A stretch of DNA of 64,000 bases. Origin: Aedes albopictus. Lineage: Eukaryota > Arthropoda > Insecta > Diptera > Culicidae. The notes under the pieces were generated by a model. That model was given only the letters and a program-made list of their open reading frames with translations. It did no database searches and had not been told where the DNA came from. The translations under genes and the position numbers were made by a program. Location of the stretch: positions 27,844,878-27,908,877 of the forward strand of contig NC_085138.1 in the NCBI RefSeq assembly GCF_035046485.1, in the 5' to 3' direction. Positions 42,487 through 59,958 of the stretch are shown in pieces (positions within the stretch are counted from its first letter, which is position 1; each line of letters starts with the position of its first letter).

Positions 42487-43059
42487 TAGATTTTGTTTCT
42501 AAAAATCTTTCAGGGATAAATTCAGGAATTTCCTTCAAGAATATCTTCAGACGAAGTGTAGAATAAGCATAAGTTAAAATACACAGAAAGAAAAATAAAA
42601 TAAAAATCTTCACGCATTCCTACACAGATTCCTTCAAAAAATCTTCAAGGAGTTCATACTTATATTTCTCAATACTTCTACTTTACAAATTTTTGCTGGT
42701 TTTGTCCTGGAAAATCTTCAATGAATTTCTTAACACTCCCACTGCCATGCCTCCCAAACAGTGGAAACGGTAATTTCAACTTGATATAACTCAGCCGTTT
42801 TTCATCCGATTTGCAAAATTTTTGAAGCTATGAATTTTCCCAGCTTTCTAGATGAGTATAAAATTTTCAAATTATGGATTTGACCAAAGTTCTATTTTTG
42901 AGTACTCAAAAACTCGGAGCAAGTACCTTAAAAATACTGTTTTTCTGGAGCCATTCCGAATGTAAATTAGTTTCCACGCATATTTTTATGTTGAATTGCC
43001 CATATTAATAAAGCAAAATTATTGCAAAGAAATATATGGAGATACTCATTATTTAAGAC

Positions 43060-44480
43060 TATAAAATCTTCACAAAATTACGTATAATACAGAAAATATG
43101 TATATTCGATTTGAACTTTGTATTCATCGCGACAACCCCTGTGTTTTATTGCTTGAAACCAATCACGTGCACATGAGAAATCTCTTTCCAAACGATTGTG
43201 AAAAGTATGAATCTCAGAAACTACAAAATTTTCATAAAATCACGTATAATACAGGAATTTCGTATTTTCAGTTTGAACTTTACGTTCATCGCGACAATCC
43301 CCATGTTATATTGCTTGAAAACAATCACGTGTACATAGGAATACTTTTCAACGCGAAAGTGAGAAGTGTGAATCGTAAAAAAAATACAAAATCCTCACAA
43401 ACTTACGTATAATACAGAAAATAAGTATATTCGGTTCGAATTTCACATTTGCCGTTACAATCCCTGTGTTTTATTGCTTGATTGAGAACAATCGCATGTG
43501 CATAAGAATACTTTTTCAAAACGAATGTGAAATGTGTAAATCTTAGGAACTAAAAAAACACAAAATTACGTGAAATACTGGAAATTTGTATTTTCAGTTT
43601 TACACTTCACGTCCGTCGCAACAATCCATGTCTATCATTGCTTCAAAACAATCACATACATACATAAGAATACATTTCCACAGCGATAGGGAGAAGTTTG
43701 AATCATAAAAACTGCACAGTTTTCACAATTTTACGTATAATACAGGAAGTTTGTATTTGTGGTTGGAACTCAACATTCATCGCGACAACCCCTGTGTATT
43801 ATTTTTTTAAACAATCAAATGCGCATGATAAGTATGATTCTTGAAAACTACAAAATCTTCAAAAAATTACGTGAAATACAGGGTTTTACTAACACATGTT
43901 TTATCTCTCGCTTCAGCTCTAGCGGTTGTTAGCTCGACTTCATTTGTTATAGAAGACGTAAATTAGTGTCAAACGGGCCGCTCCTTTTATGTGCAATCAA
44001 GTGAACTTAAATTTACATGATTTTTTCTGAGAGTGTACACTTACATTTTGACGACGATGATTCACGATACACTGAAAATTTTCAATGCTGAAAATTGTTT
44101 TTTGTTCTTTAGATAAAATCATAAGATAATATTCTTGAATTGGCAATTCCCCGCATGAAAGAACGAAATTCCCCCCTATGGGGGAATTCCCCCCTGGTTG
44201 AAAACCACTGGTATAATGCAAGATAAATGTATTTTAAGTTCGAGCTCAGCATTGATCGTGACAACCTTATTGCTTTTTTGCATGAAAATAATCAAGTACA
44301 TAAGAATACATTCTCAGAATGATTGTGAGAATGAGGAACTATTAGAACTACACTATCTTCACAAAATTACGTAAAATACAGATTTTGTTTTATTTTTGGT
44401 GAAAACACAACGTTCGTAGCGGCATCCTCTTTGTATAATTATTTTGAAATAACCTTCAGTCTAATTGTTCCGAGTACATC
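43060..44480. repeat. Left arm: ~160 bp tandem repeats
   Basis: CAATCACGTGCACAT-type landmarks recur near 43160, 43323, 43492, 43649, 43813 and, after a 332 bp insertion, 44287 and 44450. Each unit has TACGTATAATACAG, a TTCGAACTT-like block and CGCGACAACCCCTGTG. They are more diverged than the right-arm units. Confidence 0.75.
43879..44210. mobile_element. Putative 332 bp hAT-like MITE in the left arm
   Basis: It interrupts the 160 bp periodicity. The right end GGTTGAAAACCACTG inverts to CAGTGGTTTTCAACC, a typical hAT terminus; the left end CAGGGTTTTACTAAC is a diverged match. The 8 bp flanks GTGAAATA and GTATAATG are similar, as for an aged 8 bp duplication. Confidence 0.5.
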
Positions 44481-44579
44481 CTTGCTGGAATCTCTCTAAA
44501 GGTGGTATTATATACCCATATACTGCATGCACTTATGTCAGAGCATAATCCTAAAGAAATGTAAATGAACGTATTTCCA

Positions 44580-45372
44580 GAAGGATCCTTAGAAGAATTT
44601 AAAAAATCCTAGAGTTTATTCAAAGAAAAATGTTTGGAAGAATTTGAGAAGAATTTCCTGGAGGAATTCCTGCTGTATTTTTGAGAGAAATTTCGGGATG
44701 AATTCATGGGAGAATTCCGAAAGATTCTTTCCTGGGTGAATTCCTTAAGGAATTCCTAGAGAAAGTCTTGGAGGAATTACTGAAGGAACCTCTGAAGAAA
44801 TTCTTGGAGTAATCCGTGAAGGAATTCCTGGAGGAATGTCTGAAGCAATTCCTGAAAGAATCTCTAGAGAGAATCCTGAAGGAATGCATGGAGCAACTTT
44901 TAAATGAATTGCTGGCGTAACCACCTGAGGAATTCTTGGATGAGACCCAGTAGCAATTCCTGGATAAATACCTGATGGAGCTCTTGGAGAAACTCCTGGT
45001 GAAATATCCAGAGGAATTCTGGAAGGAATTTCTGGAGAAATTTCTAGAAAAATCCCTTGAGAAATTTCAGTAGGATTTCCTGGAAAAATCCTTAGAGGAA
45101 TTTCTGGAGGATTTCCTGGATGAATTTTCGAAGAATTTCCCGGAAGAATCTCTGGAAAAATCTGAAATCTGCAAGATGTCCAGGAGCATTTCCTGGAAGA
45201 ATTCCTGAAGAAATTCCTGGAGTTATTCCCGGAGGAGTTCCTGGAGAAATTCCTTGATAAAACCCTGAAGGAATGCCTGGAGGAATTCCTAGAAGAATTC
45301 CTGTGAGAAGTGTTGGAGGAATCCTTGAAGGTATTCCTGGATGAATCTCTAGAGAAATTCTTGAAAGAATTA
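44580..45372. repeat. 12-bp minisatellite inside the foldback-like element
   Basis: Clear TTCCTGGAGGAA-type units; continues after the MITE at 45373-45859. Confidence 0.8.
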
Positions 45373-45859
45373 GGGTAAATGTACCAATTATGGCTATAGT
45401 ACTAATTGTTCGCCATAGTTGATTTTCACCCTTTAACGATGTAAATCAACAAGAAAAAAATTTGTGAAAAATAGATCACGTTCACAAAAGATGGTTGCAA
45501 TCATTTAAACTTCACATTTTGCTCAAATTATGGTAGAAAGAAATCATTTTCTTTAAAATTTCGGCTTCCTTGCACCCTTTTTCGTCATAGAGTACCAATT
45601 ATGGCTAACCCCATAAGGAATGCATGCAAATAGTGCGAAAAGGAACCGAAGTTAAAAAATATAACCATAATTGGTGCAGGGTTCCTATCATTGGCACACG
45701 CTGTAATAAATACTTAAAGTTGTTTTGGGTCAGTTTCTATATTTTTCCTGTAAAGTATGGAAACTAAGCTTTTAACATATTGATGACATTCGTTGGTCCT
45801 CTCATTACTTTTGTACAAATAGTTTTCCTTAGGTAGTGCCATAATTGGTACAGCCACCC
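45373..45859. mobile_element. 487 bp TA MITE nested in the minisatellite
   Basis: Ends GGGTAAATGTACCAATTATG and (inverted) GGGTGGCTGTACCAATTATG, with TA on both sides (45371-45372 and 45860-45861). The sequence ATAATTGGTRC recurs internally. No coding capacity. Confidence 0.8.
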
Positions 45860-45861
45860 TA

Positions 45862-48318
45862 CTGGATGAATTTTTGGAGATATCTCTATAGGAAATCTGG
45901 AAAATTTGTTTTTCTGAAAAAAAAAAACCCTTGAGAAATTCCTGAAGGATTTTCTAGAGGAATTTCTGAAGGGATTCCTGGAGAAATTTTCGAAGGAATT
46001 ACTGAACTAATGCCTAGTGGAGTCCTTAGAGAAATTTGTGAGAAATCCCAGGAGGAATTCCTGGAGCAACTCCTAGAGGAATTCCTGAAAGTATCCCTGG
46101 AAAAAAATCCTGGAAGGATTTCTGAAGAAATCCCTAGAAGATTCTTAGAGGAATTTCTGAACGATTTCCTGGATGAATCTTTGAAGTATTTCTTGAAGGA
46201 ATCTTCGAAGGATTTCCTGGAGGAATTCTTGAGAAACGCCCTGGAGAAATTCATGGAGAAATCCCAGGAGGAATCATTGAAACAATTCTTGAAACAATAT
46301 TTGGAGTAATTCCTGGAGAAATGCCTAAAGGATTCCCTAAAAAATCCTTAAGGTATTCCTGGAGAATTTCCTGCAAGAATTTTTGAAGAAATTCCTATAG
46401 GATTTTCTGGAGAAATTCCTGGGGAAATTGCTGACATAATTTCTGAAGAATGTTCAGGAGCAATTTTTGTATCAACTCCTGAAGAAATGCCTGGGGCATT
46501 TCCTGGAGATTTTCCTGCAGGAGTTCCTGGAGCAATTCCTAGACTAAATCCTACAGGAATTCCTGGAGATATTTCTGTGAGAATTTCTGGAGGAATATCT
46601 GGAAGATTACCTGGAGGAATCCCCTAGAGGAATCATTGAAATAGTTATTGGATGAATTTCTGGAGGAACCTCTAAAGGAACTCTAGGAGATTTTTTTGTA
46701 AAAATCTTGAAAAGTTCCTGAAGGAATTTCTAGAGGAATTTCTGGAGGAATTCATGAAGAAATCCTCAAGGGAATTTTTGAAAAATCCCTGGAGGAATCC
46801 TCAGAGAAATTCGTGCAGAAATCCACGAAGAAGTTTCTGGAAGAATTCTCTTTGCAGAATTCCTGAAGGAATCGCTGCAGCAATTACTGGAGGGAAATCT
46901 GGAAGAATTCCTGAAGGAAACCCTGGAAAAATTTCAAAGGGTCTTCCTAGAGATAATCCTTGAAGAATTTTTGAAGGGATCCCTGAAGGATTTCATAGAG
47001 AAATTCTTGGATGAATTTATGACAGAATTTATGGAGGAATTTCTAGATCAATTCTTGGTGAATTTTCTGGAGAATTTTCCTATATTTGAGGAATGCCTGC
47101 ATGAATTCCTGGAGGAATATCAGGGGGGATCTCTGAAGGAATCGCTGAAAAGAACCTTGGAAAATTTTCTTCATGAACCCAAGTTGGAATCCCTGGAAAA
47201 TCCCTGAATAAATTCCTGGAAGAATGCCGAGGAGAATTCGTAGTGGAATTCTTGAAGGAACCCTTGAATAAATTCCTGGAGAAATCTTTGGAGGAATTCC
47301 TGTAGGAGTATCTGAAAAAACCCTTGGAGGAATCCCCTGAATAATTACTGGGAAAAATCCTGTGGGAATTCCTAGGGAAATTCCTGATGGAATTCTCGGA
47401 GGAATCCCTATAGCAGTTCCTGAAGAAAACTCTAGAGGAATTCCTGGAGAATCCCAAGGAATTCCCGAAAGAATCCCTAAACAGTTCCTGAAGGAAGTAC
47501 TGAATTTATACCTGGAGGAGTTCCTTAAAGAATTCAAGGAGAAATTCCTGAAGGAATCCTAAGAAAAGTTACTGGGGGAATTTTTAAAATAAGTTGTTCC
47601 AGAAAGAATCACAGAAGGAATTCCCGAGTGAAGCCTTGGAGAAATTCCTGGAGGAGTTTCTGGAAGATACCCTAGAGGAAAGCGTGTAGGGATTTCCTCA
47701 GGAATCTCTGCAGAAACTCCTGGAGGAATCTCTACAAGAATTCCTGGAAGCATTTCTGAAGGAATTCCTAGAGGAATATGATAAAAAAATTAGAGGTATT
47801 TCAGTAGGATTCCTTGGAGGAGTTTTTAGAGGAGTCCCTGAAACAATCCCCAGAGAAATCACTGGAAGAGTTCTTAGAGGAATTCCTGAACAAATTCGTG
47901 GAGAAATCCCATGATAAGTTCCTGAATAAATCACAGATGGAATTCTTGGAGGAATCCTGAAGTAATTTTAGAAAGAGTGGATGAACTTTTGGATGAATCC
48001 CTGTAGCAGTTTCTGAAGGAATCCCTGCAGGCGTTCCTGTAGAAACTCCAGGATGAATCCTGGAAGCAATTCCAAGAGGCATTCCTAAGGGAATCCATAT
48101 AAAGTTCTTGGAGAAAGTACTGGATTAATTCCTGGAGGAATTCCTGAAAGAATTCCAAGAGGAAGTCCTAAAGAAATTCTTAAAAGAGTTCCTGGGGAAT
48201 TCTTGGAGGAATTTTTAAAATTATTCCTGCAGCTGTTCCTGAAATAAACACAAAAGAAATGATCTCAGGATGAATTCCTGAAGAAATTCAATGAAGAATC
48301 TCATAAGCAAACCCATGA
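45862..48318. repeat. 12-bp minisatellite inside the foldback-like element
   Basis: Long, relatively regular array; the frames of up to 164 codons on both strands are repeat artefacts. 46740-47210 closely parallels 8160-8520 and 5000-5400, indicating a shared origin of the arrays. The last units lie between the SINE and 48590. Confidence 0.8.
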
Positions 48319-48494
48319 GGATTTTTTTTATCTGTATTAACGAGATTTTTAGTCCTTGGCTAGTTCATCTCGGGACCCACGTTTTACTTCCGAAGGAAGA
48401 ACTCACATTGTGTGTGTTTTTTCGGGAGTGGGATTTGATCCCAGGGCCTCGGGGTGAAATGCCTGTGCTTTAACTAATCATCACACCAGGTCCG
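48319..48494 (-). mobile_element. tRNA-derived SINE (second family)
   Basis: On the minus strand the head reads CGGACCTGGTGTGATGATTA, with box B-like GGGATCAAATCCC. A body (GAACTAGCCAAGGACTAAAA) and an A-rich tail follow. It is inserted in 12-bp minisatellite; GAGGA flanks both sides, a possible short duplication. Confidence 0.6.
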
Positions 48495-48589
48495 AGGAAT
48501 TACATAGGAAATCCCAGGAAAGATTTCTCAACAATTCTTGAAACAATTTCTGTAGGAATGCCTAGAAGAAATAAAATTGTAGGAATCCA

Positions 48590-50035
48590 TGTTTCCAGTG
48601 ATCTGTAAATTTATTCTTATATACACGTGATTGCTTTGAAACAATATTACACAAGGATTGTCACGATGAGTGTAAAGTTCGAACCAAATATACAACATTT
48701 CTGTATTGTACGTAATTTTGTGAAGATTTTGTAGTTTTGATGATTCACACTTCTCACAAATGCTTTTAAAAAATTTTCCTATGTGCACGTGATTATTTTC
48801 AAGCAATAAAACACAAGGATTGTCGCGATGAACGTAAAATTCGAACTGAAAATACGAATTCCCTGTATTATACGTGATTTTGTGAAAATTTTGTAGTTAC
48901 TAAAACACACACTTTTCACAATCGATTGGAAGAAGTTTTATAATGTACACGTGATTGTTTTCAAGCAATAAACAAGGGTTGTCGAGATGGACGTGAAGTT
49001 CAAACTGAAAAGACACATTTCCTGTAATATACGTGGTTTTGTGAAAATGTTGTAGTTCCTAAAATACACACTATTCACAATCGTTCGGAAAAAGTTATCT
49101 CATCTACACGTGATTGTTTTCAAGCAATAAAACACAGGGGTTGTCGCGATGAATGTAAAGTTCAAACCGAATATACAAATTTTCTGTATTATACGTAATT
49201 TTGTGAAGATTTTGCAATTTTTTTATTCACACTTGTCCCCATTTATCTGTAGATGTATTCTTATGTACACGCGATTATTTTCAAGCAATATAACATGGGG
49301 ATTGTCGCGATGAACGTAAAGTTCAAACTAAAAATAAAAATTCCCTATATTATACGTGATTTTATGAAGCTTTTGTAGTTTCTAAAATACACACTTTTCA
49401 CAATCGTTTGGAAAAAGCTTTCTCATGTGCACGTGATTGTTTTCAAGCAATAAACACAAGGGTTGTCACGATGGACGTGAAGTTCAAACTGAAAAGACAA
49501 ATTTCCTGTATTATACGTGATTTTGTGAAAATGATGTAGTTCCTAAAATACACACTTTTCACAATCGTTCTGAAAAAGTTTTATCATGTACACGTGATTG
49601 TTTTCAAGCAATAAAACACAGGGGTTGTCGCGATGAATGTAAAGTTCAAACCGAATATACCAATTTTCTGTATTACACGTAAATTTGTGAAGATTTTGTA
49701 GTTTTTATGAATCACACTTGTCCTCATTTATCTGTAAATGTATTCTTATGCACACGTGATTGTTTTCAAGCAATATAACATGGAGATTGCCGCGATGAAC
49801 GTGAAGTTCAAACTGAAAATACTAATTTCCTGTATTATACGTGATTTTATGAAAATTTTGTAGTTTCTAAGATACACAATTTTCACAACTGTTTGGAAAA
49901 AGCTTTCTCATGTGCACGTGATTGGTTTCAAGCAATAAAACACAGGGGTTGTCGCGATGAATACAAAGTTCAAATCGAATATACAAATTTTCTGTATTAT
50001 ACGTAATTTTGTGAAGATTTTATAGTCTTAAATAA
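48590..50035. repeat. Right arm: nine ~160 bp tandem repeats with ~484 bp higher order
   Basis: CACGTGATTGTTTT landmarks lie near 48628, 48787, 48950, 49108, 49268, 49431, 49591, 49753 and 49914 (spacing 158-163). Every third unit is most alike, for example those at 49108 and 49591, giving a 480-485 bp super-repeat. Orientation is inverted relative to the left arm. Confidence 0.85.
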
Positions 50036-50378
50036 TGAGTATCTCCATATATTTCTTTGCAATAATTTTGCTTTATTAATATGGGCAATTCAACATTAAA
50101 ATAAGCTTGGAAACTAATTTACATTCGGAATGGCTCCAGAAAAACAGTATTTTTTAAGGTACTTGCTCCGAGTTTTTGAGTACTCAAAATAGAACTTTGG
50201 TCAAATCCATAGTTTGAAAATTTTATATTCATCTAGAAGGCTGGGAAAATTCATAGCTTCAAAAATTTTGCAAATCGGATAAAAAACGGCTGAGATATTA
50301 GCAGTTGAAAAATACCGTTCCCACTGTTTTGAGGCATGGCAGTTGGTGTAAGTGATTTATAGCATGGCAGTGGGAGTG

Positions 50379-51300
50379 TTAAGAAATTTTCAAGAATTTC
50401 CTTCAAAATTTCTTTTACGTAGGGATTCCTGCAAAATATCTTTAACGATTACTTAGAAACCCTTGAATAGATTTCCTTAGTTATTCCTCCATGGATTCCT
50501 ATGGAAAATCCTACATATTTTTTTTAAAGAAACCCCTCTAAGAATTCCTTCAGAAAATCTTCCAGTGATTTTTTTAGAAAATCGTCCATGGATTTCTTTA
50601 GAAATTTGGCCCATTTGAAAAAAAAATGTGTCTTTGAGATTTCTGAAATGCAAAATATATTCGTACTTTTTCTCATAAAAGAGAAATAATTTTTGAAAAT
50701 ATTTATGGGACTCACATTTAAACTCCTTAAGAAATGGAATGAAAAAAAAATGAGAAAAAGCAAAAGCGGTGGAACCTTGTTTCTTCGGAACACCAAAATC
50801 AAACTTTTAAAAAAACTTAAAAAAAAGAATAAATACAAACTTTTGCAAATTAACCATGTCCATAGTTGTGAAGCGCTAATCTGGATGCTCGCCAAAGGCG
50901 CCATGGAACCACGCAACGGCTCTGCTAGTATGGCAATGGTGACGAATACAAATCACCGTGTTTTATAAACTATAGATCATGGAAAGTGACTTGTTTCATC
51001 TCATTTTGCACTTTTCGTTCAATTTAGGTGCTTAACTTAACCAATCAGCAGATGTAGTCCTGAGTAATTGATGTAAATCCCTAGGAAACATTAAATACTA
51101 AAGCACAGGAGATTAGAAAAGAACCTGAAAGTTTTTCAATACCCTTCACGATCACGATAATGACCTATTTTGCCTCATACAACCTAAAAGTATAAAAAAT
51201 CTAAGTTTCGTCGTAGTTTTTTGAAGCTTCTTCTGATTCCTTTCAAGCAAAAAGAATATTTTGTGCATAGGCAACTGGAAAACATGTTAAAACCATTATG
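50379..51300. other. Decayed minisatellite, then AT-rich spacer
   Basis: 50390-50600 has residual GATTCCT words. 50640-51000 has a short GC-richer block without a recognisable gene; the 130- and 91-codon frames overlap on opposite strands and are Phe/Lys-rich. Confidence 0.4.
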
Positions 51301-56949: not shown

Positions 56950-59900
56950 TCAAACGTTTCTATCCTGAGCAAGATTCCAAGGAAAATCCTGGACAGGATT
57001 CCAAGGAAAATCCTGGTCAGGATTCCATGGAGAATCCTGAACAGGATTCCGAGGAGAATCCTGAACAGGATTCCGAGGAGAATCCTGAACAGGATTCCGA
57101 GGAGAATCCTGAACAGGATTCCGAGGAGAATCCTGAACAGGATTCCGAGGAGAATCCTGAACAGGATTCCGAGGAGAATCCTGAACAGGATTCCGAGGAG
57201 AGTCCTGAACAGGATTCCGAGGAGAATCCTGAACAGGATTCTGAACGGGATTCCAAGGAGAATCCTGGTTCAGGATTCCAAGGAGAATCCTAGTTCAGGA
57301 ATCCAAGGAGAATCCTGGTTCAGAATTCCAAGGAGAATCCTGGTTCAGGATTCCAAGGAGAATCCCGGTCAGGATTCCGGAGAGAAACCTAAGCAGGATT
57401 CCGGAGAGAATCCTGAGCAGGATTCCGGAGAGTATCCTGAAAAGGATTCCAAGGAGAATCCTGAACAGGATTCCAAGGGGAATCCTGAACAGGATTCCAA
57501 GAGGAATCCTGAACAGGATTCCAAGGAGAATCCTGGTCAGGATTCCAAGGGGAATCCTGGTTCAGGATTCCAAGGGGAATCCTGGTTCAGGATTCCAAGG
57601 GGAATCCTGGTTCAGGATTCCAAGGGGAATCCTGGTTCAGGATTCCAAGGGGAATCCTGGTTCAGGATTCCAAGGGGAATCCTGGTTCAGGATTCCAAGG
57701 GGAATCCTGGATCAGGATTCCAAGGGGAATCCTGGTTCAGGATTCCAAGGGGAATCCTGGTTCAGGATTCCAAGGGGAATCCTGGTTCAGGATTCCAAGG
57801 GGAATCCTGGTTCAGGATTCCAAGGGGAATCCTGGTTCAGGATTCCAAGGGGAATCCTGGTTCAGGATTCCAAGGGGAATCCTGGTTCAGGATTCCAAGG
57901 GGAATCCTGGTTCAGGATTCCAAGGGGAATCCTGGTTCAGGATTCCAAGGGGAATCCTGGTTCAGGATTCCAAGGGGAATCCTGGTTCAGGAATCCAAGG
58001 GGAATCCTGGTTCAGGATTCCAAGGGGAATCCTGGTTCAGGATTCCAAGGGGAATCCTGGTTCGGGATTCCAAGGAGAATCCCGGTTAGGATTCCAAGTA
58101 GAATCATGATCAGGATTCCAAGCAGAATCCTGGTCAGGAATCCAAGCAGAATCCTGGTCAGGATTCCAAGCAGAATCCTGGTCAGGATTCCAAGCAGAAT
58201 CCTGGTCAGGATTCCAAGCAGAATCCTGGTCAGGATTCCAAGCAGAATCCTGGTCAGGATTCCAAGCAGAATCCTGGTCAGGATTCCAAGCAGAATCCTG
58301 GTCAGGATTCCAAGGAGAGTCCTGGTTCAGGATTCCAAGGAGAATCCTGGTCAGCATCCAAGGAGAATCCTGGTCAGGATTCCAAGGAGAATCCTGGTCA
58401 GAATTCCAAGGAGAATTCTGGTCAGAATTCCAAGGAGAATCCTGGTCAGGACTCCACGGAGATTCCTGGTCAGGACTCCACGGAGAATCCTGGTCAGGAC
58501 TCCACGGAGAATCCTGGTCAGGACTCCACGGAGAATCCTGGTCAGGACTCCACGGAGAATCCTGGTCAGGACTCCACGGAGAATCCTGGTCAGGACTCCA
58601 CGGAGAATCCTGGTCAGGATTCCAAGGAGAATTCTGGTCAGGATTCCAAGGAGAATTCTGGTCAGAATTCCAAGGAGAATCCTGGTCAGGATTCCAAGGA
58701 GAATCCTGGTCAGGATTCCGTGGAGAATCCTGAACAGGATTCCGTGGAGAATCCTGAACAGGATTCCGTGGAGAATCCTGAACAGCATTCCAAGGAGAAT
58801 CCTGAACAGGATTCCTAAGAGAATCCTGGTTCAGGATTCCAAGGAGAATCCTGGTTCAGGATTCCAAGGAGAATCCTGGTTCAGGATTCCAAGGAGAATC
58901 CTGGTTCAGGATTCCAAGGAGAATCCTGGTTCAGGATTCCAAGGAGAATCCTGGTTCAGGATTCCAAGGAGAATCCTGGTTCAGGATTCCAAGGAGAATC
59001 CTGGTTCAGGATTCCAAGGAGAATCCTGGTTCAGGATTCCAAGGAGAATCCTGGTTCAGGATTCCAAGGAGAATCCTGGTTCAGGATTCCAAGGAGAATC
59101 CTGGTTCAGGATTCCAAGGAGAATCCTGGTTCAGGATTCCAAGCAGAATCCTGGTCAGGCATCCAAGGAGAATCCTAGTCAGGAATCCAAGGAGAATCCT
59201 GGTCAGGATTCCAAGGAGAATCCTGGTTCAGGATTCCAAGGAGAATTCTGGTCAGAATTCCAAGGAGAATCCTGGTCAGGATTCCAAGGAGAATCCTGGT
59301 CAGGATTCCGTGGAGAATCCTGAACAGGATTCCGTGGAGAATCCTGAACAGCATTCCAAGGAGAATCCTGAACAGGATTCCTAAGAGAATCCTGAACAGG
59401 ATTCCAAGGAGAATCCTGGTTCAGGATTCCAAGGAGAATCCTGGTTCAGGATTCCAAGGAGAATCCTGGTTCAGGATTCCAAGGAGAATCCTGGTTCAGG
59501 ATTCCAAGGAGAATCCTGATTCAGGATTCCAAGGAGAATCCTGGTTCAGGATTCCAAGGAGAATCCTGGTTCAGGATTCCAAGGAGAATCCTGGTTCAGG
59601 ATTCCAAGGAGAATCCTGGTTCAGGATTCCAAGGAGAATCCTGGTTCAGGATTCCAAGGAGAATTCTGGTTCAGGATTCCAAGGAGAATCCTGGTTCAGG
59701 ATTCCAAGGAGAATCCTGGTTCAGGATTCCAAGGAGAATCCTGGTTCAGGATTCCAAGGAGAATCCTGGTTCAGGATTCCAAGGAGAATTCTGGTCAGGC
59801 ATCCAAGGAGAATCCTAGTCAGGAATCCAAGGAGAATCCTGGTCAGGATTTCAAGGAGAATCCTGGTTCAGGATTCCAAGGAGAAATCTGGTCAGGATTC

Positions 59901-59958
59901 CAAGAAGAATTCTTAACAGGATTCAAAAAAGAATCCTGAGCAGGATTCCAAGAAGTGC
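56950..59958. repeat. 3 kb satellite of 24/25-bp units
   Basis: Unit consensus CAGGATTCCAAGGAGAATCC plus TGGT (24 bp) or TGGTT (25 bp). Blocks: 24-bp GAACAGGATTCCGAGGAGAA type at 57027-57250; 25-bp AAGGGGAATCC type at about 57540-58075; 24-bp AAGCAG type at 58100-58310; 24-bp ACTCCACGG type at 58440-58615; 25-bp AAGGAG type at 58805-59140 and 59400-59790. About 120 units in all. Every unit contains inverted GGATTC/GAATCC segments. Open frames of up to 405 codons result from the repeat. Confidence 0.95.

What the first reader, a model, noticed from the sequence alone, without database searches (positions are those of the whole stretch)
42734..50378. 7.6 kb foldback-like element with TTAA duplication and a minisatellite as cargo
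Both outer ends carry CACTCCCACTGCCATG in inverted orientation next to TTAA, each arm is a ladder of ~160 bp units, and the interior is the same 12-bp minisatellite found elsewhere in the window. Foldback elements with tandem-repeat arms are known in insects, but one with a TTAA site and a degenerate minisatellite interior is not one I recognise. It offers a way for the minisatellite to spread.
Basis: partly seen in the sequence, partly recalled or inferred. Interest (0 to 1): 0.75.

Follow-up and report, generated by a model that had tools for sequence, protein, structure and literature searches.

The report
Large non-coding TTAA transposon with minisatellite
This is a real 7.6 kb mobile DNA element with no recognisable gene of its own, one of more than a hundred copies in a mosquito-like genome, which has jumped into TTAA sites much as piggyBac elements do and carries kilobases of old minisatellite DNA with it.

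Summary
Window 42734-50378 is one copy (7,645 bp) of a dispersed family. The 16-bp terminus occurs 273 times in the genome, 247 of them with TTAA directly outside. Among the first 100 listed termini, 40 inward-facing pairs lie within 30 kb, median spans 8.6-8.8 kb. Four insertion sites have an uninterrupted copy with one TTAA elsewhere. Two elements without TTAA have TTAT on both sides, so the 4 bp are duplicated target. The minor sites (TTAT/ATAA/CTAA) are those published for the piggyBac element Pokey. The two ends differ in inner spacing by 27-28 bp, close to T. ni piggyBac. No transposase was seen in 21 sampled copies. The minisatellite is a fixed part of the family, mostly 94-96% identical between copies, not fresh cargo. 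Other window arrays are mostly 71-85% related, not recent copies. Best reading: a giant, foldback-shaped, non-autonomous TTAA element moved in trans by a piggyBac-type transposase. No partner with the same ends was found. New variant of a known kind.

The parts
42730..42733 (.). TTAA, left target-site copy
   Evidence: family-wide 247 of 273 termini
42734..42749 (+). 16-bp terminus CACTCCCACTGCCATG, A end
   Evidence: 273 genomic copies
42734..43057 (+). unique A end before the ladder, about 320 bp, less diverged between copies than the interior
   Evidence: Wilcoxon p=2.6e-4, bases 17-320, 20 copies
43058..44451 (-). left ladder of 162-bp units (6 unit hits), interrupted near 43880-44215 (by eye) by a non-ladder stretch inside a segment that aligns in one piece to several other copies
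44560..45370 (.). 12-bp minisatellite, first part (start by eye; TRF array from 44729); this copy lacks 747 alignment columns after 44744
45371..45859 (.). private 489-bp nested insert with its own inverted ends, TA on both sides
45860..48290 (.). 12-bp minisatellite, main part, shared with the other copies
48291..48500 (-). SINE-like stretch (tRNA-type box read by eye only)
   Evidence: sequence; no tRNA match among the Rfam matches up to E 0.1
48614..50026 (+). right ladder of 162-bp units, 8.8 copies by TRF, 9 unit hits
50059..50378 (-). B end, about 320 bp, with an extra 28 bp (about 50344-50371) against the A end
50379..50382 (.). TTAA, right target-site copy

Best explanation
A large non-autonomous cut-and-paste transposon of the TTAA class. 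Its two ends (16-bp terminal repeat plus an inner inverted copy of the octamer TCCCACTG, set 27 bp further in at one end) are recognised by a piggyBac-type transposase supplied in trans. The element is cut out at TTAA and pasted into a new TTAA, duplicating it. Everything between the ends (162-bp ladders and several kb of ancestral minisatellite) is carried passively; the ladders gain and lose units between copies. SHOWN: family, termini, 4-bp target duplication, empty sites, common interior, no transposase found in 21 copies, ladder length variation. INFERRED: that the enzyme is of the piggyBac superfamily, the trans supply, the cut-and-paste chemistry, the passive role of the interior.
For: Termini and TTAA. 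Twenty paired copies were fetched, chosen to fit 10 kb, out of the 40 pairs among the first 100 listed termini: 19 of 20 have TTAA on both sides, as has the window copy. Empty sites: L010's joined flanks match a nearby second copy of the target over 239 bp at 98.3%, no gap, one TTAA; 3 of 9 further joined sites (L014, L017, L025) have junction-spanning copies, the best at 99-100% over about 204 bp. Two elements without TTAA carry TTAT on both sides. Sites in the first 100 listed termini: 88 TTAA, 8 TTAT/ATAA/CTAA (from 6 insertions), 4 other; published per insertion for piggyBac-superfamily Pokey: TTAA 88.13, TTAT 5.93, ATAA 5.09, CTAA 0.85% (PMC3849761, passages). End asymmetry: ACTGCCATG at 8 in A ends and at 8 and 36 (28 bp further) in 19 of 21 B ends; the inner octamer at 26 in 20 of 21 A ends and at 53 (27 bp further) in 18 of 21 B ends; T. 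ni piggyBac repeats are spaced 3 bp at one end and 31 bp at the other (PMC2532691, one passage). The genome holds 117 PF13843 (piggyBac DDE) matches, several in open frames of 450-650 aa. One stretch (L031/L032) holds TTAA-flanked ends that match the 16-mer at 11 of 16; over the 14 piggyBac loci 1 of 300 shuffled 16-mers did as well. Interior without codon phase (0.026/0.027/0.023).
Against: The terminus starts CACT, not the CC[C/T]T given as general for piggyBac (PMC2872659). The 11-of-16 ends belong to a short neighbouring element and two of its copies; the perfect 20-bp ends around the L032 transposase itself match only 9 of 16. No other family shares the terminus: TTAACACTCCCACTGD has 3 places, control 2. 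No PF13843 match lies in or within 3 kb of the 40 listed pairs; the nearest to 100 listed A ends is 21.7 kb from the A end, about 10 kb outside that element's B end. 6 of 9 joined sites showed no empty copy among the 40 scored candidates. L023 lacks TTAA on one side. Two-part end motifs are not universal in the superfamily: piggyBat is said to lack the recognisable pattern (PMC11707139, passages).
Confidence: 0.78

Rival explanations
1. A Kolobok-superfamily non-autonomous element, another TTAA-duplicating group.
For: Kolobok also duplicates TTAA (PMC9587614, passage).
Against: The same passage gives Kolobok termini as 5'-RR and YY-3'; here they are 5'-CA and TG-3' in the 21 copies read. The TTAT/ATAA/CTAA minor sites are those reported for piggyBac; whether Kolobok uses them too was not looked up.
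Confidence: 0.06
2. A true foldback (Mutator-type) element of the Tetris/FB kind that happens to sit beside TTAA.
For: Long inverted arms built of tandem repeats, variable unit number, non-coding middle, as described for Tetris (PMC4079207, passages).
Against: Tetris has 8-10 bp duplications; here the duplication is 4 bp, TTAA or TTAT.
Confidence: 0.04
3. A composite: two separate arm elements flank minisatellite DNA and were mobilised together, the arms still moving alone.
For: 20 of the first 100 listed termini have no exact partner within 30 kb; L004 has only 106 bp of the B end next to minisatellite that does not match the interior of four copies.
Against: The ends are asymmetric (A and B) and not homogenised (A against B within a copy 92.3%, A against A between copies 97.5%, B against B 95.6%, 14 copies); 40 pairs are mostly of similar span; the interior is mostly 94-96% identical at the same place, so the whole unit moves. 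Single termini can be decayed copies (the partner of C1:198044734 has one changed base). It may still describe the remote origin.
Confidence: 0.08
4. Not a transposon: spread by segmental duplication or satellite exchange.
For: Three termini on C1 63.57-63.60 Mb share their outer flank (AATG; L048-L050) and so were copied with it.
Against: Flanks of the 21 copies differ, empty sites.
Confidence: 0.02

Closest known systems
Pokey, piggyBac superfamily, Daphnia (PMC3849761; passages seen, some from the abstract)
   Same: TTAA target duplication with the same minor sites in similar proportion; carries repeats derived from elsewhere in the genome; has non-autonomous derivatives.
   Different: Pokey encodes a transposase and its 200-bp repeats come from the rDNA spacer; its non-autonomous forms are about 750 bp. 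Here most sampled copies are 7.6-9.6 kb, without a transposase, with ladder arms and minisatellite.
piggyBac of Trichoplusia ni (PMC2532691; one passage seen)
   Same: Two-part ends whose spacing differs between the two ends by 28 bp (here 28 or 27 bp by the motif measured).
   Different: 2.4 kb, encodes its transposase; a different terminal sequence (recalled).
Tetris foldback element, Drosophila virilis (PMC4079207; passages seen, some from the abstract)
   Same: Long inverted arms with internal tandem repeats, non-coding middle, no autonomous partner found, link between a transposon and satellite DNA.
   Different: 8-10 bp duplications (its authors suggest Mutator), three structurally complete copies; here 4-bp TTAA, more than 100 copies, and a minisatellite as the middle.
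CMITE, piggyBac-related MITEs of corals (PMC2872659; abstract and passages seen)
   Same: Non-autonomous, TTAA, conserved internal region of unknown origin; whole elements can form tandem arrays.
   Different: Classed by the authors as miniature elements; the word minisatellite does not occur in the paper and no ladder arms appear in the passages seen.

Membership tests
piggyBac superfamily | TTAA target-site duplication | tested here: met
   247 of 273 termini; empty sites
piggyBac superfamily | rare non-TTAA sites keep the middle TA (TTAT, ATAA, CTAA) | tested here: met
   8 of the 12 non-TTAA termini among the first 100 listed; two elements with TTAT on both sides
piggyBac superfamily | 12-19 bp terminal repeat with CC[C/T]T motif (given as general in PMC2872659) | tested here: not met
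   16-bp repeat but CACT
piggyBac superfamily | DDE transposase of PF13843 in the element or in an element with the same ends | tested here: not met
   no PF13843 match in the 40 listed pairs; no Pfam match in 5 of the longest frames of the 21 copies; none near 100 of 109 exact A ends; no other family shares the terminus. Pairs beyond the listing caps were not checked.
piggyBac superfamily | asymmetric two-part ends (as in T. ni piggyBac; not universal) | tested here: met
   28 bp for ACTGCCATG in 19 of 21 copies; 27 bp for the octamer, 20 of 21 A ends and 18 of 21 B ends
Kolobok | termini 5'-RR ... YY-3' | tested here: not met
   CA ... TG; rule from PMC9587614
Mutator-type foldback (Tetris) | 8-10 bp target duplication | tested here: not met
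   4 bp
Mutator-type foldback (Tetris) | long inverted arms with internal tandem repeats | tested here: met
MITE | small size, non-coding, inverted ends | tested here: not met
   non-coding and inverted ends met, but 20 of 21 copies read are 7.6-9.6 kb and one is 4.2 kb
any family named in Repbase | sequence match to a named consensus | not testable with these tools
   no library of animal repeats was available

The most novel reading that the evidence does not exclude
A foldback-shaped lineage on piggyBac-type (TTAA) ends that has no autonomous partner with matching ends in its own genome. It has been moved well over a hundred times in trans, perhaps by a host-domesticated or cross-acting piggyBac transposase, and so acts as a TTAA shuttle that disperses minisatellite DNA over the three large contigs.
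Probability: 0.3. Interest if true: 0.6.

Novelty: new variant of a known kind. Interest (0 to 1): 0.45.

Why it matters
It shows that long tandem-repeat arms (the foldback shape) can arise on TTAA-type ends, and that such a system can keep moving 8-9 kb of non-coding repeat DNA. That gives one documented route by which minisatellite sequence is dispersed, and a clean set of ends, target sites and copies for testing which of the genome's many piggyBac transposases accepts foreign ends.

Tried and rejected
Autonomous partner: the PF13843 search, 14 piggyBac loci read for ends, and the terminus variants TTAACACTCCCACTGCCATGD (0 places), TTAACACTCCCACTGCCB (3 places, control 0) and TTAACACTCCCACTGD (3 places, control 2) gave no second family with the same ends. 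One place (C2:286663185) lies about 6 kb from an interior match (C2:286656409) and so is probably a decayed copy.

A coding role for the 12-bp array was rejected: no codon phase; of 86 deletions up to 60 columns 25 are multiples of 3 and 19 multiples of 12; no Pfam match in five of the longest frames. RNA families: four sub-threshold matches only. Recent spread of the other window arrays from this element was rejected, although short hits covering 140 of the 2,809 matched bases reach 85% or more, 86 of them 90% (run with 4 of 21 copies). Insertion preference for minisatellite: comparing the flanks of 21 copies with the loci held, the one flank seen to match the shared interior of several copies was the window's right flank; no genome-wide test was made. 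Terminal folding: no excess over shuffles.

Literature: ten searches. No listing shows a TTAA foldback with a minisatellite interior; only listings, abstracts and passages were read. ATon, a non-autonomous group of Aedes aegypti, was looked at in abstract (PMC3422177) and set aside because it inserts at AT.

Failed or replaced: one search timed out and was replaced.

Rows dropped: L012 stood in B-to-A order in the alignment (so include it so) and was excluded (divergence part); one search also left out L023 and L024; one search used 14 of 21 copies; one search tested 9 of the 19 joined sites prepared, chosen by eye as likely to lie in repeats; one search used 74 typed positions standing for the 117 PF13843 matches, and those of C1 and C2 only. 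The copies were picked by an exact 16-mer, so the zero divergence of the last 16 bases is by construction.

Searches were added.
Full report
What is there. The window lies in an unnamed 1.34 Gb genome with three large contigs of 338, 519 and 450 Mb; from recall this resembles an Aedes mosquito, but no call names it. The stretch 42734-50378 is as described: CACTCCCACTGCCATG at both ends in inverted orientation, TTAA outside each end, inverted arms of about 1.7 kb (74.5% identical) made of a 162-bp unit, and a degenerate 12-bp minisatellite between them.

Is it a mobile element? Yes. The 16-mer occurs 130 times forward and 143 times reverse (control 0 and 1). With TTAA in front it occurs 247 times (control 0). 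Among the first 100 listed places 40 inward-facing pairs lie within 30 kb (median spans 8.79 kb on C1, 8.63 kb on C2; range 4.2-26.9 kb) and 20 termini are single. The exact 41-base string of TTAA plus the first 37 bases of the A end occurs 109 times. I infer roughly 110-140 copies.

Target duplication. Of 20 fetched pairs, 19 have TTAA on both sides; L023 has it on one. Because TTAA is a palindrome it could be part of the element, so two further tests were made. First, empty sites: the joined flanks of L010 match a second copy of its target region, about 1.3 kb beyond the element, over 239 bp at 98.3% without a gap, with one TTAA. Of nine more joined sites, three (L014, L017, L025) have uninterrupted copies in the genome, the best at 99-100%; for L017 and L025 the best copy lies 6-9 kb from the insertion. 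The other six gave none among the 40 scored candidates, which does not exclude them. Second, all 12 of the first 100 listed termini that lack TTAA were read (11, L023): eight show TTAT, ATAA or CTAA, three share one outer flank ending in AATG, and one is the L023 end. Two of these elements are complete pairs and carry TTAT on both sides (C1:159492394 and C2:160967327), so the four bases are duplicated target.

Which enzyme? The published site spectrum of Pokey, a piggyBac element, is TTAA 88.13%, TTAT 5.93%, ATAA 5.09%, CTAA 0.85% of insertions (PMC3849761, passages), close to the 88 TTAA and 8 TTAT/ATAA/CTAA of 100 termini here. Kolobok, another TTAA group, has purine-purine starts (PMC9587614, passage), unlike CA here. 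The two ends are asymmetric: ACTGCCATG stands at position 8 in the A ends, and at 8 and 36 in the B ends of 19 of 21 copies (L010 and L022 have other DNA inserted there). An inverted octamer stands at 26 in 20 of 21 A ends and at 53 in 18 of 21 B ends. So the shift is 28 bp by one motif and 27 by the other. T. ni piggyBac repeats are spaced 3 and 31 bp (PMC2532691, passage), a difference of 28; piggyBat is said to lack such a recognisable pattern (PMC11707139, passages), so this is a likeness and not a defining test. The genome has 117 PF13843 matches. Of 14 piggyBac loci read, L032 has perfect 20-bp ends around its transposase, which match the 16-mer at 9 of 16; ends of a short neighbouring element at L031/L032 match at 11 of 16 (1 of 300 shuffles). 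Against a piggyBac origin, the element starts CACT rather than CC[C/T]T (rule in PMC2872659), and no second family with the same ends was found. I therefore say that it works like a piggyBac element and very probably uses such an enzyme, but do not file it as a proven member.

The interior. No PF13843 match lies inside or within 3 kb of the 40 listed pairs. The longest open frames in the 21 copies read (up to 393 codons) look like minisatellite frames, and five of the longest have no Pfam match. Median pairwise identity per 300 columns is 90-99%, mostly 94-96%. Mean divergence from the per-column majority is 2.6% in the interior and 1.3-1.5% in the terminal 320-330 bp (18 copies). Without the last 16 bases, and with 20 copies, it is 3.5% against 1.9% at each end (p=2.6e-4 for each), which suggests that the ends are what matters for mobility. 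There is no codon phase. An 801-bp interior piece has 40 scored full or near-full matches at 93% or more; 35 of 40 lie within 15 kb of a listed terminus and the other five are on C3, whose termini are only partly listed. The window copy is 1.9% from the majority, lacks 332 columns (about two ladder units) and 747 further columns, and carries a private 489-bp nested insert.

The minisatellite at large. Other arrays of this window share short stretches with the element interior: the 25 best of 57 hits are at 71-85%, and 140 of 2,809 matched bases lie in hits of 85% or more. One of those arrays, used as a query, finds arrays of over 10 kb elsewhere, with long matches at 66-73% (e.g. C2:146289838-146303076). 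So the minisatellite is an old and widespread kind of sequence, of which this element holds one piece that it has copied; the element does not explain the other arrays.

Arms. Unit hits vary from 5 to 11 on the left and 4 to 10 on the right in the 20 correctly oriented copies, as expected from unequal exchange or slippage. Whether the units bind transposase, as described for Galileo (mentioned in PMC4079207, passage), is unknown.

Verdict. Observation confirmed; the cargo idea is replaced by an ancestral interior; a new variant of a known kind, of moderate interest.

Noticed in passing
45371-45859: A 489-bp element nested in this copy, not shared by most other copies, inverted ends GGGT...GTACCAATTATGGC, flanked by TA.
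   Followed up: partly
48291-48500: SINE-like stretch with a tRNA-type box, read by eye, inside the minisatellite.
   Followed up: no
56962-59952: A separate, very regular 24-25 bp tandem array (about 110 copies, 94% matches).
   Followed up: no
L006 1517-2732: Copy L010 is inserted beside a tandem array of about 137-bp units.
   Followed up: partly
L048-L050 (G000:C1:63571980-63603587): Three termini with the same outer flank ending AATG: probably one old insertion multiplied by local duplication.
   Followed up: partly
L004 1411-1516: A lone B end of 106 bp with TTAA outside, and inside it minisatellite that does not match the element interior.
   Followed up: partly
G000:C2:146289838-146303076: A 13-kb array of the 12-bp minisatellite with no listed terminus near it.
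   Followed up: no
L029, L030, L033: piggyBac transposase frames of 564-600 aa for which the scan saw no matching inverted ends within the fetched 5 kb; possibly domesticated genes.
   Followed up: no
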